DNA of 64,000 nucleotides from Thermoplasma volcanium GSS1 (GTDB taxonomy: Archaea; Thermoplasmatota; Thermoplasmata; Thermoplasmatales; Thermoplasmataceae): assembly GCF_000011185.1 (NCBI RefSeq), contig NC_002689.2, positions 558,001 through 622,000 on the forward strand, read 5' to 3'. Below are positions 9,610-16,984 of this stretch, in pieces. The notes below the pieces were generated by a model. It saw only the letters and a program-made list of their open reading frames with translations. It was not told where the DNA came from and made no database searches. Within the stretch, counting starts at the first letter, position 1. The number at the start of each line of letters is the position of its first letter. The position numbers and the translations under genes were made by a program.

Positions 9610-9683
9610 GCCGTCGTAGCTCAGCCTGGTAGAGCGCGTGCTTGGTAAGCACGAGGTCGCGGGTCCGAACCCCGTCGGCGGCT
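9610..9683 (+). tRNA. tRNA-Thr (anticodon GGT)
   Basis: A full cloverleaf is visible. The seven-base acceptor stem GCCGTCG pairs with CGGCGGC (one G-T pair). The anticodon stem CGTGC/GCACG closes the loop TTGGTAA, giving anticodon GGT. The T arm is GCGGG/CCCGT around TCCGAAC. U73 is the discriminator and CCA is not encoded. No intron is present. It decodes ACC/ACU threonine codons. Confidence 0.96.
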
Positions 9684-10042: not shown

Positions 10043-11632
10043 ATGAAGGTTTTACTTATAAAACCCCTTAACCCTACAGGAAGCGGATACACCACAAAGT
10101 TCGGGTTCCTGCCAACACCTCTCGGTCTTGAGGATCTTGCAGGTGAAGCTAGAGTAGTAGGCATAAAAGATGTCAAGATAGTTGACATGGAGGCAGATGA
10201 GTTAACGCTAAACGAAATGGTTGCCTATATTGATAGATGGAGACCCGACGTTATAGGAATCACTCTTCACGCGACTGCAGCGCATTCATTTTCTCAGCAA
10301 CTGGCAACGCAAGTTAAGTCAATATACAATCCACTGATCGTTGCCGGTGGGCATCAGGCTACTTTTGTACCAAATCAGTTACTTGACAACGGTTTTGACG
10401 TGATAGTGCTCGGCGAAGGAGACGAAACTTTTAGGGAAATTCTAAAACACTACAAGGACGGAATAGACTTCGACAACATTCCAGGCATAGTTTTCAAAAG
10501 GAATGGAAGAAAATTTAGAACGAAAAAACGAGAACTTATTGATGACCTTGATTCATTGCCAATCCCTGCTTTTGACTTAGTTGAACCAGAAAAATATACA
10601 TTTAAGGTTTTTGGTGAAGGCAGCGTGGCAACGTTAGAGACCTCAAGGGGATGTCCGTATGCCTGCGATTTTTGTTCTGTTACTCCAACGTGGGGTAACA
10701 AATGGCGCAATAAATCAAACGAAAGAATAATGGAAGAGCTTAGGATAATAAAGCAATTAGGCTACAAGTGGGTCTTCTTTACAGATGATATTTTTATAGT
10801 TTATCCTAACGTAAAGCAGAGAGAAGACTTGTTTAATAGAATCATAGAAGAAGATCTTGGATTGAAATTTATAGTTCAGATGAGGGCAGATGTCACCGCC
10901 AAGAACCCAGACTTAATAAAGAAGGCCGCCCAGGCGGGTCTAACTATTGCTTTCCTTGGAATTGAATCTGGAAGTGAGGAAGTACTTAAGGCAATGCATA
11001 AGGGCATAATAACAGATTCATCTATCCGAGCAGTCAAAGTTTTAGAGGAAAATAATGTCGTTGTGCTTGGAGGCATGATGCTCGGTGCTCCATACGAGAG
11101 GATATCCGACATCAGGAAAACGATAAAATTTTCAAGGATATTGGCAAGGGCGGGAATAGATGCCATTCAATTTAGTACGTATACACCGCTGCCTGGAACC
11201 CGAATATTTCTTGATTCATTGAGAAACAAAAAAATATTCACATTAGATTGGTCAAGGTACGACATATTGACCCCTGTTGCTATAACTAAAGTGAATCCAG
11301 CGATAATCCAAGCCTTAACGGCGTATGCTTATTATACCTTCTATATCTATAAGTGGCTACACGACAGGCTCCATTCAATTAGAGCTGTAGGCTTCAAAGA
11401 CCAGATAATGCTAAATGCCCAGAAGTTTATCCTCAGGATGATGCCATCCTATGTAAAGGACATACTCAGACTGCCGTCTGACGTCATAAAGACCGCATTG
11501 CTTTACAGGAACGGGTTGAAGCATATGGATTTCGATCAGACTACAGTAAACGAACTCCTTAACGATTCGAGCCAGATTGTGTACAAAGAGACTGGTACTA
11601 AGAATCCTTACTTTAAGATCAAGAACCAATGA
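10043..11632 (+). CDS. B12-binding radical SAM enzyme (possible lipid-modifying type)
   Basis: A 529-residue protein with an N-terminal cobalamin-binding Rossmann domain (MKVLLIKPLNPTG, PDVIGITLHA, VAGGHQAT, VLGEGDETF; residues ~1-140). A radical SAM TIM barrel follows, with the [4Fe-4S]-binding CPYACDFCSV (~CxxxCxxC) and downstream FTDDIF and GIESGSEEVLKAM motifs. The C-terminal ~150 residues are helical and aromatic-rich. The domain order resembles the BchE/HpnR/Grs superfamily of enzymes acting on hydrophobic substrates. Thermoplasma makes tetraether lipids with cyclopentane rings, so a GDGT ring synthase (Grs-like) role is a reasonable hypothesis, not demonstrated here. The gene is monocistronic and probably leaderless. 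Confidence 0.8.
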   Translation: MKVLLIKPLNPTGSGYTTKFGFLPTPLGLEDLAGEARVVGIKDVKIVDMEADELTLNEMVAYIDRWRPDVIGITLHATAAHSFSQQLATQVKSIYNPLIVAGGHQATFVPNQLLDNGFDVIVLGEGDETFREILKHYKDGIDFDNIPGIVFKRNGRKFRTKKRELIDDLDSLPIPAFDLVEPEKYTFKVFGEGSVATLETSRGCPYACDFCSVTPTWGNKWRNKSNERIMEELRIIKQLGYKWVFFTDDIFIVYPNVKQREDLFNRIIEEDLGLKFIVQMRADVTAKNPDLIKKAAQAGLTIAFLGIESGSEEVLKAMHKGIITDSSIRAVKVLEENNVVVLGGMMLGAPYERISDIRKTIKFSRILARAGIDAIQFSTYTPLPGTRIFLDSLRNKKIFTLDWSRYDILTPVAITKVNPAIIQALTAYAYYTFYIYKWLHDRLHSIRAVGFKDQIMLNAQKFILRMMPSYVKDILRLPSDVIKTALLYRNGLKHMDFDQTTVNELLNDSSQIVYKETGTKNPYFKIKNQ

Positions 11633-11640
11633 ATAGATCG

Positions 11641-11652
11641 AAATATTTATTA
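11641..11652 (+). promoter_or_regulatory. TATA box of the vWA-PP2C operon (leaderless)
   Basis: The AAATATTTATTA element is centred about 28 nt upstream of ATG 11675, with no ribosome-binding site between. It gives the vWA-PP2C pair its own promoter, separate from the upstream radical SAM gene. Confidence 0.55.
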
Positions 11653-11674
11653 AAGTAAGACAATTGTTTTCATA

Positions 11675-12508
11675 ATGTATGACGCAGAGATAAGTCGAAG
11701 AAATCCTGGCCTTTTCCTTTTTCTTGTCGATCAATCGAGATCCATGGTAAGGAAGATAGCTGGTGGAAGTGAATCAAAGGCCAAAGAAGCTGCAGATGCC
11801 ATAAATAGACAGATCGGAGAGCTAATAATGAGGTGCACAAAGAACGATGGGGTGCGTGATTACTTTTACGTTGGGGTGATAGGTTATGGGGGAGAGAAAG
11901 GCAAGGCATCCTATCTACTTGATGATGATCTAGTACCTGTTTCGAAACTAGCCGAAAACCCCATAAGGACGGAAAAAAGGGTAATGAAGATACCAGACGG
12001 ATCTGGAGGTACAGCGGACGTTGAATACGAATTCGGAGTGTGGTTCGAAGCTGTTGCGAACAGCGATACACCTATGGTTAAGGCGATGAATATGGCAAAG
12101 GAGGCTGTCGAAAAATGGGTCTCAGAGCATCCGTCTTCGTATCCGCCTATAATTATAAACGTAACTGATGGCCAATCTACCGATGGGGATCCTTATCCTG
12201 TAGCAAGAAATATAATGGAAATGGAGACAGACGACGGGAATCCTATGATATGGAACTGCCATATATCATCCGAGAACGCTGCTCCTCTCTCGTTTCCTTA
12301 CTCAGAGAATCAGCTGCCAAATGATATGTATGCAAGGTCCCTTTTTAAGATGTCTAGCATACTTCCTACGAAATATATAAATTACGCTATTGAGGCTTTT
12401 CCGGATATTAGAGATGGATCTAGATCATACGTTTTTAACGCTCAACTTGAGCAGATGATTGAGTTCATCGATATTGGTACGAGGGGAGCAATAAGTTCTA
12501 TGGAATGA
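11675..12508 (+). CDS. TerY/YegL-type von Willebrand A domain protein
   Basis: A 277-residue single-domain vWA protein. The metal-ion-dependent adhesion site is complete: DQSRS (residues 19-23) gives DxSxS, DTPMVKAM supplies the threonine, and NVTDGQSTDGDP the distal aspartate. It is followed 9 nt later by a PP2C-type phosphatase, and then by a convergent protein kinase. This trio is the composition of the bacterial TerY-P or YegL-YegK-YegI triad, where the vWA protein is thought to be the scaffold or phosphorylated target (family knowledge). No signal peptide is present, so it is probably cytoplasmic. Confidence 0.85.
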   Translation: MYDAEISRRNPGLFLFLVDQSRSMVRKIAGGSESKAKEAADAINRQIGELIMRCTKNDGVRDYFYVGVIGYGGEKGKASYLLDDDLVPVSKLAENPIRTEKRVMKIPDGSGGTADVEYEFGVWFEAVANSDTPMVKAMNMAKEAVEKWVSEHPSSYPPIIINVTDGQSTDGDPYPVARNIMEMETDDGNPMIWNCHISSENAAPLSFPYSENQLPNDMYARSLFKMSSILPTKYINYAIEAFPDIRDGSRSYVFNAQLEQMIEFIDIGTRGAISSME

Positions 12509-12517
12509 AGATTCGCG

Positions 12518-13216
12518 ATGCTGTATCTTTATTCCTATCATCAGCCAAAGATAGGAAACACTGAAAACGAATATGAAGACGCCTTCGCATATGACCTTAA
12601 CACTGGCAGGTTTGCGATGGCAGACGGCTCTTCAGAATCTGTATTCTCAAACATATGGGCCAAAGCACTTGTTGATGAATTTGTTTCGGGAGACTACATA
12701 CTTAAAATAGACACTTTAGTAGAAAAGGCAGCTAGCAAATGGCAAAGCAAACTGCCATGGAAGGAAATGAAGTGGTTCGTAAAAAATAAAATAATGATGG
12801 GGGCCCTCTCTACCTTTCTTGGTCTTGTCGTATCTGATGAAAAGTTTAGTGCAGTTGCGGTTGGTGATACATGCCTATTTGTATTTTCTTCAGGAGGCTA
12901 TAGAAGCTTCCCTATTACCAAGTTAAGTGATTTTGGAAATAGCCCAAAGCTGGTTTGGACAGGCAATCCAGTTTTGAGGGCAAGGAGGCAAATCAAATGG
13001 GTGAATTTCCTTGAAGGCCAGACTGATGGCGTTGTACTTGTAATGGCAACAGATTCTCTATCCTACTGGATACTAAAGAATGCAGAAAACGATCCGTGGC
13101 TGACGCTCCTTAACAGCAAAGGCCATGAAAAAGAGTTTATTGATGATCTGATAGAGAAGAAGAAGATTAAGAACGATGATATTACGTTTACAATTATTTC
13201 GCAGAATAAAATTTAG
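12518..13216 (+). CDS. PP2C-like Ser/Thr phosphatase of the TerY-P triad
   Basis: A 232-residue PPM/PP2C-type phosphatase. The metal-binding motifs are recognisable: ED (residues 20-21) in NEYEDAF, ADGSSES (Asp36) in place of VADGMGG, AVGDTCLF for the GDS motif, VMATDSLSYW for SDGL, and the C-terminal NDDITFTII. The ADGSSES form is typical of YegK-like members rather than of classical PP2C. It lies 9 nt after the vWA gene in the same direction and its end overlaps the convergent kinase gene by 23 nt. It probably dephosphorylates the vWA protein or the kinase. Confidence 0.83.
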   Translation: MLYLYSYHQPKIGNTENEYEDAFAYDLNTGRFAMADGSSESVFSNIWAKALVDEFVSGDYILKIDTLVEKAASKWQSKLPWKEMKWFVKNKIMMGALSTFLGLVVSDEKFSAVAVGDTCLFVFSSGGYRSFPITKLSDFGNSPKLVWTGNPVLRARRQIKWVNFLEGQTDGVVLVMATDSLSYWILKNAENDPWLTLLNSKGHEKEFIDDLIEKKKIKNDDITFTIISQNKI

Positions 13217-14399
13217 TTGGTTCTACAGCGTTAACGTTTCCATCTTGCAGCGATTTAATGAGCAAGGAGGCTAACTTAGCAGATTTTCCTCCCATTTTTT
13301 TGATGTAATCAAAGACTTCAGATCTTTCGTAGTGAAGGAAATCATCCTTCCTAAAGAGCAAAGCATCAGGATCGTCACCATTGAATTTCCATGCTTCAGG
13401 CCGAAGTGATAGAACGTAGAGAGATGTATATATTACTAGGGCAGAAAAATTGTCCATGTCCTCGCCGTAATCGCTGGATCTCCTTGAAGGATGCTGAAAA
13501 TTCTCATGCCCGTTTTCGTTGGAGGGCAGATCCTTGAGCGATGGCACATACATACCGTCGTAATCAACGAATATTACCTTTCCATTTGATATCATTATGT
13601 TGTCGCTTGAAAGGTCTCCATGAGCGATGTGGTTTTTCTTTAAAAGAATCACACTCTTTGCGAATTCGTTTGCTATCCTCCTTATTTCTTTGCCGTCATC
13701 CAAGTTCCTTTTTATGTAAGTGTAAAGAGAATCACCTTCTATCCAATCCATCTTGAGAACAGGATAATATATGGAAGGGTCTTTCATAGTTCTTACCCCC
13801 GCTTCCAAATACTCGAAGTTCACAATACAGCTCAAATTTCTGCTTTTTATGTGTTTGCCAATTTCATAATACCTCTTGTGAAGGTCAGATCCTTTAGTAA
13901 AACACTTTATGGCATAGTACTTCGATTCTTTTTCGATCTTGAAAATCAGTCCGTAATTTCCTGATGAATATATCATGTTTCCGGTCATCTTTACATTTGG
14001 ATTTTTTATGACAGTTCCACCGGAAAGTTCCCGCGCAAAAGAGTAACCGGGATTCTGAAAAGCCTGGGAATACTCGAACTGATTAGGCCATTTCTTCACT
14101 TCAGTGAACGTAGATTCTGCATGCTTATGCGATACCTCTTCCGTACTTTCTATAGGTTTAGGTGTGATCAATTCTTTTCTGTCGATTATAGAAACAAAGA
14201 GATCTATCACCCAAATAACAACTACTATCGAAGCAACTAAAAGATCAAAGTGCAAATATTTAATATCAACACCAGAAAATAGAAAATACGAATCTATCTG
14301 GGTTATATGGCCCAGAAAGAAAGGTTGTAACAAAGATACTAGTAAAACTCCACCCGCTACGGTACCAGCAACAGCAACTGTTTTCTTTAGTGTAGTCAA
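13194..14399 (-). CDS. Membrane-anchored Ser/Thr protein kinase of the TerY-P/YegI type
   Basis: A 401-residue kinase with two predicted N-terminal transmembrane helices (about 5-28 and 50-72), a linker to ~115, then a protein-kinase-like domain. A glycine-rich loop SSGNYGLIF (145-153) is followed by the ATP-site lysine K165 in YYAIK. The catalytic loop HGDLSSDN gives D262 and N267. VDYDGMYVP gives the metal-binding D279 with DYD in place of DFG. The DYDGMYVP segment, followed by a GHENFQHPSRR stretch, resembles the YegI-like kinases of the vWA-PP2C-kinase triad. The helix-hairpin-helix tail of the E. coli form is absent. It converges with the PP2C gene with a 23-nt overlap. Confidence 0.82.
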   Translation of the reverse strand: MTTLKKTVAVAGTVAGGVLLVSLLQPFFLGHITQIDSYFLFSGVDIKYLHFDLLVASIVVVIWVIDLFVSIIDRKELITPKPIESTEEVSHKHAESTFTEVKKWPNQFEYSQAFQNPGYSFARELSGGTVIKNPNVKMTGNMIYSSGNYGLIFKIEKESKYYAIKCFTKGSDLHKRYYEIGKHIKSRNLSCIVNFEYLEAGVRTMKDPSIYYPVLKMDWIEGDSLYTYIKRNLDDGKEIRRIANEFAKSVILLKKNHIAHGDLSSDNIMISNGKVIFVDYDGMYVPSLKDLPSNENGHENFQHPSRRSSDYGEDMDNFSALVIYTSLYVLSLRPEAWKFNGDDPDALLFRKDDFLHYERSEVFDYIKKMGGKSAKLASLLIKSLQDGNVNAVEPTKFYSAK

Positions 14400-14463
14400 T
14401 GCATAGAAAATATACGCAGTGTATATTTAAGGCTAATCGGGCCTTATACGTTACCTTCCATTG

Positions 14464-15929: not shown

Positions 15930-16120
15930 TGCCTATCATCCCTCTTTTTTATGGTTATTATCATTACAAGCATTAATTTTGCCAATTGTAATTCTATATG
16001 GTCAGCTATGCTTAAAATGAGGAACATACGAGTGTGCTTGCATATCGAAACCTTTATGGATTTTGCTGTGTTTCTCCCTTTATAAAAAACATACTTATAT
16101 GCAACTATTATGCGTTTACT

Positions 16121-16193
16121 GGGGCCGTGGGGTAGCCTGGTATCCTTCCAGCTTCGGGAGCTGGAAACTCCGGTCCAAATCCGGACGGCCCCA
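16121..16193 (+). tRNA. tRNA-Pro (anticodon CGG)
   Basis: Acceptor stem GGGGCCG pairs with CGGCCCC. The anticodon stem CCAGC/GCTGG encloses TTCGGGA, giving anticodon CGG. The T arm is TCCGG/CCGGA around TCCAAAT. The discriminator is A and CCA is not encoded. It decodes CCG proline codons. A TACTTATAT element about 25 nt upstream is its likely TATA box. Confidence 0.95.
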
Positions 16194-16984
16194 TACTAAT
16201 CATATTAAATTGGAAAAATTAAATTGGGTTATCGCTTATGGAAAGCCTTATTGATTTTCATTAAATTAAATTATCGTGGAAAAATTCTAATAAATAAGAG
16301 GTGCCCACTCAAAGTGATAGATGAGTAAAGACAACTTACTTAAAAATGATACTAGTTAACTTTAGTTTTATGAGCATACAATAGTGAAGGATAAAAAACA
16401 TCAAATTAAGAAAAATTAATTTATTAAGAGGCGAAAATTAGCTATTTTTAAAAATGTGTCTAAAGTACTGCCACAAAGCTGTATTATGAAACGAAAGTAT
16501 AGAAACGATAAATGGGATAAAAAATTGGCATTTAAATATATAATACGTTCTCGAGAAAATATTGAAATGATGTATTTATTCATAAATGGAGAGAATAAAA
16601 TTTATAATAAAATGAGTCAAGGCTATTTAACCTAGAATATATTTTAATTGATTGGGTTTATGTGAACACTGATTATAGTCGACATTAAGAGCGTTATTGA
16701 TAGTATAAAAGTTGTTCTATTGCAAAAGATAGTCCATTTATTATACAACAAGAAGAATAAAAATAAAAATTGATCATACGCTATAACCAGCAATAAGATG
16801 GTTATTATACAGAAAATAAAATAACTAAAGAAACATTAGGATAGATCAAACCGAGAAGGAACAATGAATATTGACTTGATTTATGAATCAGTGCGTTTAT
16901 TGCGTTGGTAGATGTGTACTAAATCCTATGCTATAGTAATATTAAGATTGAAATTGTGTGGCTAAATTAGAGAAAGAGGTGACA
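16194..16984. other. AT-rich degenerate intergenic region, about 790 bp
   Basis: Very AT-rich DNA with frequent stops in all frames and no gene supported. It lies between tRNA-Pro and a dead transposase, so decayed insertion-sequence DNA at a tRNA-adjacent site is likely but not shown. No CRISPR-like or clear tandem repeats are seen. Confidence 0.5.

What the first reader, a model, noticed from the sequence alone, without database searches (positions are those of the whole stretch)
11675..14399. Archaeal vWA / PP2C / membrane protein kinase triad
Three adjacent genes encode a MIDAS-complete vWA protein, a YegK-like PP2C phosphatase and a YegI-like kinase with DYDGMYVP. This is the composition of the bacterial TerY-P (YegL-YegK-YegI) triad. 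Here the kinase is convergent, overlaps the phosphatase by 23 nt, lacks the helix-hairpin-helix tail and has gained two N-terminal membrane helices. That suggests a phosphorylation switch read out at the membrane, rarely described in archaea. The triad family is established; the membrane version and its purpose are inference.
Basis: partly seen in the sequence, partly recalled or inferred. Interest (0 to 1): 0.7.

Follow-up and report, generated by a model that had tools for sequence, protein, structure and literature searches.

The report
Archaeal TerY-P kinase switch, re-tethered
Three neighbouring genes of a heat- and acid-loving archaeon (most likely Thermoplasma volcanium) encode a phosphorylation on/off switch related to a bacterial anti-virus system, but in this archaeal family the kinase gene is flipped, has lost the bacterial tail, and carries one of three different front-end modules (membrane helices in Thermoplasma).

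Summary
In detail: intact vWA (TerY), PP2C and kinase genes at the stated coordinates, kinase convergent, 23-nt 3' overlap, two predicted N-terminal helices. The family assignment needs correcting. The trio is the TerY-P (TerY/PP2C/STK_OB) branch, not E. coli YegL-PphC-YegI, which only resembles it remotely.

It is not a Thermoplasma oddity. The trio is near-core in one archaeal family (TerY in 31 of 37 genomes), and in 28 of 29 loci with both genes the kinase and phosphatase stops lie -23 to +12 nt apart. Bacterial relatives are rare, co-directional and often in defence islands.

All complete archaeal kinases lack the bacterial C-terminal tail and carry an N-terminal module: 2-6 helices, a PH/GRAM-like domain, or a filamin/Ig-like domain. 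Each class is one fully supported clade.

Membrane attachment is probably not new. Ten of ten proteobacterial STK_OB kinases end in a hydrophobic helix or amphipathic tip, so the tether seems to have moved from C- to N-terminus.

Best reading: a kinase/phosphatase switch acting on TerY, sited by the N-terminal module. Substrates, signal and any anti-viral role are untested. New variant of a known kind.

The parts
11675..12508 (+). TerY-like vWA protein, 277 aa, complete MIDAS
   Evidence: PADLOC TerY E=5e-87, residues 2-272 over profile 3-274/277; 45-47% identical to proteobacterial TerY
11729..11743 (+). MIDAS motif DQSRS (residues 19-23); further MIDAS residues T132 (12068-12070) and D165 (12167-12169)
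   Evidence: invariant in 51 archaeal and 13 bacterial TerY at D19, S21, S23, T132, D165
11641..11653 (+). TATA-like box AAATATTTATTAA, 22-34 nt before the TerY start
   Evidence: identical in all five genus members
12518..13216 (+). PP2C-family phosphatase, 232 aa
   Evidence: PADLOC TerY-P PP2C E=1e-26; Pfam PP2C_2 20 bits, below cut-off 24; metal aspartates invariant
13194..14399 (-). TerY-P kinase, 401 aa: N-terminal membrane module plus catalytic core, no C-terminal tail
   Evidence: PADLOC STK_OB E=3e-60 over profile 4-273 of 562 only; Pfam Pkinase 37.8 bits, above cut-off; only Pkinase match over cut-off in the genome
14325..14381 (-). predicted transmembrane helix 1 (residues 7-25)
   Evidence: hydropathy, conserved position in five species
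14184..14240 (-). predicted transmembrane helix 2 (residues 54-72)
   Evidence: hydropathy 2.84, conserved position in five species
13272..14090 (-). kinase catalytic core (residues 104-376)
   Evidence: 33% identical over about 265 residues to bacterial TerY-P kinases
13599..13622 (-). catalytic loop HGDLSSDN (residues 260-267)
   Evidence: HGD and N invariant in archaea and bacteria
13542..13565 (-). metal-binding/activation motif DYDGMYVP (residues 279-286)
   Evidence: DYD invariant in archaea and bacteria
13194..13216 (.). 23-nt tail-to-tail overlap of PP2C and kinase genes
   Evidence: stop-to-stop distance -23 to +12 nt in 28 of 29 family loci that hold both genes
14421..14432 (-). TATA-like box (CCTTAAATATAC) 22-33 nt before the kinase TTG start
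   Evidence: A/T-rich box at about the same place and TTG start in all five genus members

Best explanation
The three genes form an archaeal TerY-P phosphoswitch. The kinase phosphorylates the metal-binding vWA protein TerY (and perhaps TerY-bound partners), the PP2C phosphatase reverses it, and the phosphorylation state of TerY decides what it binds. The kinase is sited in the cell by its N-terminal module. In Thermoplasma this is a two-helix membrane anchor with both ends inside and a 28-residue outward loop, so the switch is sited at, and possibly gated from, the membrane. Relatives use 4-6 helices, a PH/GRAM-like domain or a filamin/Ig-like domain on the same core. The archaeal form arose from a bacterial-type TerY-P in which kinase core and OB tail lay in one direction behind TerY and PP2C. 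The kinase gene was inverted, the tail lost, and a module gained at the other end. Kinase and TerY-PP2C thus have separate promoters and face each other with abutting stops, so their doses can be set separately and may oppose each other. SHOWN here by sequence: identity, intact catalytic residues, architecture, conservation, module classes. INFERRED: TerY as substrate, membrane siting, expression logic, direction of the change, and a stress or housekeeping rather than anti-phage role.
For: Profile placement. Trio conserved: TerY in 31 of 37 family genomes, PP2C in 31, kinase at E<=6e-65 in 30. Convergent with stops -23 to +12 nt apart in 28 of 29 loci, the exception having a broken kinase. N-terminal module and C tail of at most 4 aa in all complete archaeal kinases, against core-first, co-directional genes in bacterial loci, with C tails of about 250-375 aa in the STK_OB type. 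Module classes are three starred clades, 3 changes where 3 is the least possible. N-terminal sequence only 17-23% identical within the genus but helix positions kept, core 67-71%: this fits selection for anchoring rather than for sequence. PH-like fold by AlphaFold2 pLDDT 85 with Foldseek hits to PH domains of GRK2 and MTMR6. No TerD in the genome. Published precedent: the archaeal vWA protein ArnB is a kinase substrate whose phosphorylation changes partner binding (PMC12852372), and TerY-P is hypothesised as a metal-sensing phosphorylation switch (PMC11090510).
Against: No data on kinase activity, substrates, localisation or phenotype. Transmembrane calls are hydropathy only. The Ig-like class has no obvious membrane link, so membrane siting is not common to the whole clade. 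A bacterial cousin is a reported anti-phage system (PMC7699616), so defence is not excluded. The aRF1 tree suggests exchange of the trio between genera, which fits an accessory system better than a strictly vertical core one.
Confidence: 0.6

Rival explanations
1. It is an anti-virus defence system, as the bacterial TerY-P is reported to be: the trio senses infection and triggers a phosphorylation-dependent shut-down.
For: TerY-P acts against T7-like phages (PMC7699616); PADLOC profiles match all three proteins; NCBI names the closest E. coli genes 'TerY-P anti-phage system' and one copy sits beside a type I restriction system; the trio seems to move between archaeal genera.
Against: Near-core and single-copy in the family whereas bacterial copies are sporadic (5 of 5426 E. 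coli genomes; 1 of 392 and 2 of 369 genomes, the query genome counted). Archaeal flanks are mostly housekeeping (radical SAM, Nre, PEPCK, proteasome) while bacterial flanks hold Drt, Lamassu and candidate defence genes. The OB tail of the tested defence version is absent.
Confidence: 0.22
2. It is the archaeal counterpart of E. coli YegL-PphC-YegI, sharing that system's role.
For: Same three-protein composition and same gene order TerY, PP2C, kinase; weak but significant profile similarity of YegL and YegI to the archaeal profiles.
Against: YegL, PphC and YegI do not match PADLOC TerY, PP2C or STK_OB at E<=0.001, and YegI keeps a helix-hairpin-helix tail; similarity to bacterial TerY-P is enormously stronger.
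Confidence: 0.06
3. The kinase is a membrane receptor kinase whose physiological substrates are unrelated to TerY; the trio is kept together only by shared expression or shared transfer.
For: It is the only Pkinase match over the cut-off in the genome, so it could serve many substrates; it has a separate promoter-like box.
Against: The three genes stay together while all flanks change; TerY is the most conserved partner (87-90% within the genus).
Confidence: 0.12

Closest known systems
Bacterial TerY-P anti-phage system (PADLOC TerY, PP2C, STK_OB; annotated in E. coli strain E2, L204)
   Same: Same three protein families, same catalytic motifs, TerY 45-47% and kinase core about 33% identical; bacterial kinase probably also membrane-tethered
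   Different: Bacterial genes co-directional, kinase core first with a 250-375 aa OB-type tail ending in a TM helix or amphipathic tip; archaeal kinase convergent, tail-less, with an N-terminal module
TerY-P triads of Type II/III-A CoCoNuT systems (PMC11090510)
   Same: vWA, PP2C and Ser/Thr kinase triad
   Different: There the kinase carries a C-terminal zinc ribbon and the triad accompanies McrB/helicase-nuclease genes; neither was seen here
E. coli YegL-PphC(YegK)-YegI
   Same: vWA, PP2C and kinase neighbours in the same order
   Different: Outside the STK_OB/TerY profiles, co-directional, helix-hairpin-helix tail on the kinase
Sulfolobus ArnA/ArnB with ArnC/D kinases and PP2A (PMC12852372, PMC7472852)
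   Same: Archaeal vWA protein whose kinase/phosphatase state changes partner binding; works-like analogue
   Different: FHA partner, PP2A-type phosphatase; homology to the trio was not tested here
GRK2 (PH-domain kinase recruited to membranes)
   Same: PH-like domain linked to a protein kinase core, as in the PH-class relatives
   Different: Fold-level analogy only, about 18% identity; not the window's own architecture

Membership tests
TerY-P triad (broad sense: TerY vWA + PP2C + Ser/Thr kinase) | TerY-like vWA with complete MIDAS | tested here: met
TerY-P triad (broad sense: TerY vWA + PP2C + Ser/Thr kinase) | adjacent PP2C phosphatase with metal-binding aspartates | tested here: met
TerY-P triad (broad sense: TerY vWA + PP2C + Ser/Thr kinase) | adjacent kinase whose core matches STK_OB | tested here: met
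   E=3e-60 over profile 4-273
TerY-P triad (broad sense: TerY vWA + PP2C + Ser/Thr kinase) | trio conserved as neighbours in related genomes | tested here: met
TerY-P anti-phage system (OB-fold type, Gao et al. 2020) | C-terminal OB-fold tail on the kinase | tested here: not met
   profile 274-562 unmatched; archaeal C tails of 1-4 aa
TerY-P anti-phage system (OB-fold type, Gao et al. 2020) | three co-directional genes (usual layout, not strictly defining) | tested here: not met
   kinase convergent in the archaeal loci of the clade that hold both genes
TerY-P anti-phage system (OB-fold type, Gao et al. 2020) | protection against virus | not testable with these tools
   needs a plaque assay
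YegL-PphC-YegI | kinase of the YegI type with helix-hairpin-helix tail | tested here: not met
CoCoNuT-associated TerY-P | zinc-ribbon tail on the kinase | tested here: not met
   no C-terminal tail
Tellurium-resistance (ter) cluster | TerD-family proteins in the genome | tested here: not met
   no PF02342 match in the genome

The most novel reading that the evidence does not exclude
TerY-P began as a membrane-tethered bacterial defence switch (kinase held by a C-terminal membrane tip). It was taken over by Thermoplasmataceae as a near-core membrane or stress switch, with the tether moved to the N-terminus and then diversified into three alternative modules (transmembrane, PH/GRAM-like, filamin/Ig-like) on one unchanged catalytic core.
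Probability: 0.35. Interest if true: 0.75.

Novelty: new variant of a known kind. Interest (0 to 1): 0.55.

Why it matters
This is the only protein in the genome that passes the Pfam Pkinase cut-off, so it may be the main Hanks-type kinase of Thermoplasma apart from RIO/Bud32-like proteins, and no function was found for it in the papers searched. The result gives it a testable role, links an archaeal signalling trio to a bacterial anti-phage system, and suggests that membrane tethering, and not nucleic-acid binding alone, is a shared property of TerY-P kinases. Three module classes on one core make a natural swap experiment.

Tried and rejected
Rejected: membership in YegI/YegL/YegK. Rejected: ter-cluster association (no TerD). 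Rejected: the N-terminal helices as an artefact of start choice, because the TTG start and helix positions recur in five species. Rejected: a claim that all Ig-class members carry an N-terminal amphipathic membrane helix; only some look that way. Led nowhere: no solved structure of TerY or this PP2C by sequence; plasmids gave one distant kinase and viral contigs none; two wider bacterial samples gave almost no further STK_OB kinases for the C-terminal tip test, which therefore rests on 10 related proteins plus one E. coli copy. The primary papers (Anantharaman 2012, Gao 2020) were not held, so they are cited through PMC11090510 and PMC7699616. Sigma-70-type promoter and terminator scans found less than the shuffles and do not apply to archaea.

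Full report
WHAT IS THERE. The three ORFs are at the stated positions. The window lies at 558001-622000 of a single 1,584,804-base contig. That is the size I remember for Thermoplasma volcanium GSS1; named Thermoplasma records carry TerY proteins 87-90% identical. All active-site residues expected for a vWA MIDAS, a PP2C and a Hanks-type kinase are present and conserved. The kinase starts at TTG in all five genus members, with an A/T-rich box at a similar distance upstream; TerY has its own box AAATATTTATTAA, identical in all five. So the kinase and the TerY-PP2C pair most likely have separate promoters.

FAMILY. PADLOC profiles place the proteins in TerY-P: TerY 5e-87 over the full length, PP2C 1e-26, STK_OB 3e-60 but only over positions 4-273 of 562. 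E. coli K-12 YegL, PphC and YegI match none of those profiles, and YegI carries a helix-hairpin-helix tail. Direct similarity of the window proteins to proteobacterial TerY-P is far stronger (TerY 46%, E=2e-87; kinase core 33%, E about 1e-43) than to YegL/PphC/YegI (best 6e-5).

DISTRIBUTION. In the family (37 genomes) TerY is present in 31, PP2C in 31 and a strong kinase match in 30. The near-complete genomes lacking it belong to three genera (g9, g18, g19), whose three representatives form one clade on an aRF1 tree. Among 390 genomes of the phylum only two outside the family had TerY, one of them divergent. In bacteria it is sparse: 5 of 5426 E. coli genomes, and 1 of 392 and 2 of 369 genomes around two bacterial carriers, the query genome counted each time. 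Only the trio is shared between archaeal genera; the flanking genes change.

ARRANGEMENT. In 28 of 29 family loci with both genes, the PP2C and kinase genes face each other with stop-to-stop distances of -23 to +12 nt; the exception (L047) has an interrupted kinase. The other archaeal loci of this clade, from named records, are also convergent. Every bacterial locus in which a kinase was found has it co-directional with TerY and downstream of it, as do E. coli YegI and the E. coli TerY-P.

KINASE ARCHITECTURE. Archaeal kinases: an N-terminal module of 96-326 residues, then the core, then 1-4 residues. Bacterial STK_OB kinases: core first, then a tail of about 250-375 residues. The N-terminal modules fall into three classes. 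TM class: 2 helices in Thermoplasma, 4-6 in the others. PH class: weak Pfam hits to PH_TFIIH, POB3_N, bPH_3 and GRAM; the AlphaFold2 model has seven strands and a C-terminal helix at pLDDT 85, and Foldseek finds GRK2, MTMR6, SSRP1 and TFIIH, all PH-containing proteins. Ig class: model pLDDT 81, with filamin domains among the best hits. On a TerY plus kinase-core tree each class is one starred clade and only three changes are needed, the minimum. The two-helix Thermoplasma form groups with the 4-6-helix forms with full support. Within the genus the N-terminus has diverged to 17-23% identity against 67-71% for the core, yet the helices stay in place. A single-marker aRF1 tree rejects the TM and Ig species as clades (AU p 0.019 and 0.015; PH 0.11), which hints at transfer of the trio between genera, but it rests on one gene.

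MEMBRANE ATTACHMENT IS PROBABLY OLDER. All ten full-length proteobacterial STK_OB kinases (L110-L116, L118-L120) end, after a Pro/Ser-rich linker, in a hydrophobic helix (L111, L112, L119, L120) or a short amphipathic tip such as KIFDWLFG, RLFAWLFRW or KIFKWLSRLLH. Hydrophobic residues are enriched in the last 12 of each (p 0.04 to 1e-4). For four of the six amphipathic tips the hydrophobic moment exceeds every other window of the same tail; for the other two it is in the top 7-8%. The E. coli copy ends NIVTKILKWLLG. These proteins are related, so this is nearer one observation than ten. It suggests that the tether changed ends rather than being invented in archaea.

DEFENCE OR NOT. Of 99 archaeal flanking proteins few match PADLOC at 1e-15: mainly one type II methyltransferase, one UvrD-type helicase, one DRT-associated helicase profile, QueC and MADS-like hits. 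The commonest Pfam hits are housekeeping or metabolic families. Of 68 bacterial flanking proteins several match specific defence genes: Drt1a, Drt2, Lamassu LmuB and PDC candidates, and the E. coli copy sits beside a type I restriction system. With near-core distribution this favours a physiological role in archaea, but does not exclude defence.

MECHANISM. From the families involved, the kinase should phosphorylate TerY and PP2C should reverse it; TerY then binds partners depending on its state and its metal. The Sulfolobus vWA protein ArnB gives an archaeal precedent for a vWA protein switched by phosphorylation (PMC12852372). The two Thermoplasma helices, with lysines before helix 1 and R/K after helix 2, put both ends inside by the positive-inside rule, with a short outward loop. 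The loop could sense the outside, or the helices could simply hold the kinase at the membrane. None of this is shown experimentally.

LIMITS. Transmembrane and amphipathic calls rest on hydropathy and moments. The flank comparison depends on mechanically chosen ORFs. Bacterial sampling is thin and the tree has long bacterial branches, so the direction of the change (bacterial layout first) is an inference.

Noticed in passing
L047 6230-8020 and L084 5832-7622 (Thermogymnomonas acidicola JCM 13583): The kinase, and apparently the PP2C as well, are interrupted in this record; either decay of the trio or assembly errors.
   Followed up: partly
L124-L128 and L131-L141: Magnetotactic and other Alphaproteobacteria (Magnetospirillum, Magnetovibrio, Terasakiella) carry TerY next to a short TerY-P-like kinase; many of these kinases end in a short hydrophobic tip such as GLFSFIS.
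   Followed up: partly
L117 6740-9913: A Thermotogae TerY-P kinase of 1057 aa has 458 residues before the core and an FGE-sulfatase domain after it.
   Followed up: no
L122 4974-7639: Three tandem TerY-like genes precede PP2C and kinase in a Chthonomonas record.
   Followed up: no
L165 338-3675: A divergent TerY trio in another Thermoplasmatota family has a different layout (PP2C and kinase on either side of TerY, both on the opposite strand).
   Followed up: no
L098 5352-7500: The PP2C frame runs on for 520 aa antisense through the kinase gene, as if its stop were lost.
   Followed up: no
genome position 708345-708857 (outside the window): A second PP2C gene, closer to the Pfam model than the window's; possibly the one studied biochemically in T. 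volcanium (from memory).
   Followed up: no
window 10043-11632: A B12-binding radical SAM protein lies directly upstream of TerY in all five genus members, on the same strand, but not in other genera.
   Followed up: partly
window 9610-9683 and 16120-16194: tRNA-Thr(GGT) and tRNA-Pro(CGG) genes flank the region at about 2 kb on either side.
   Followed up: no
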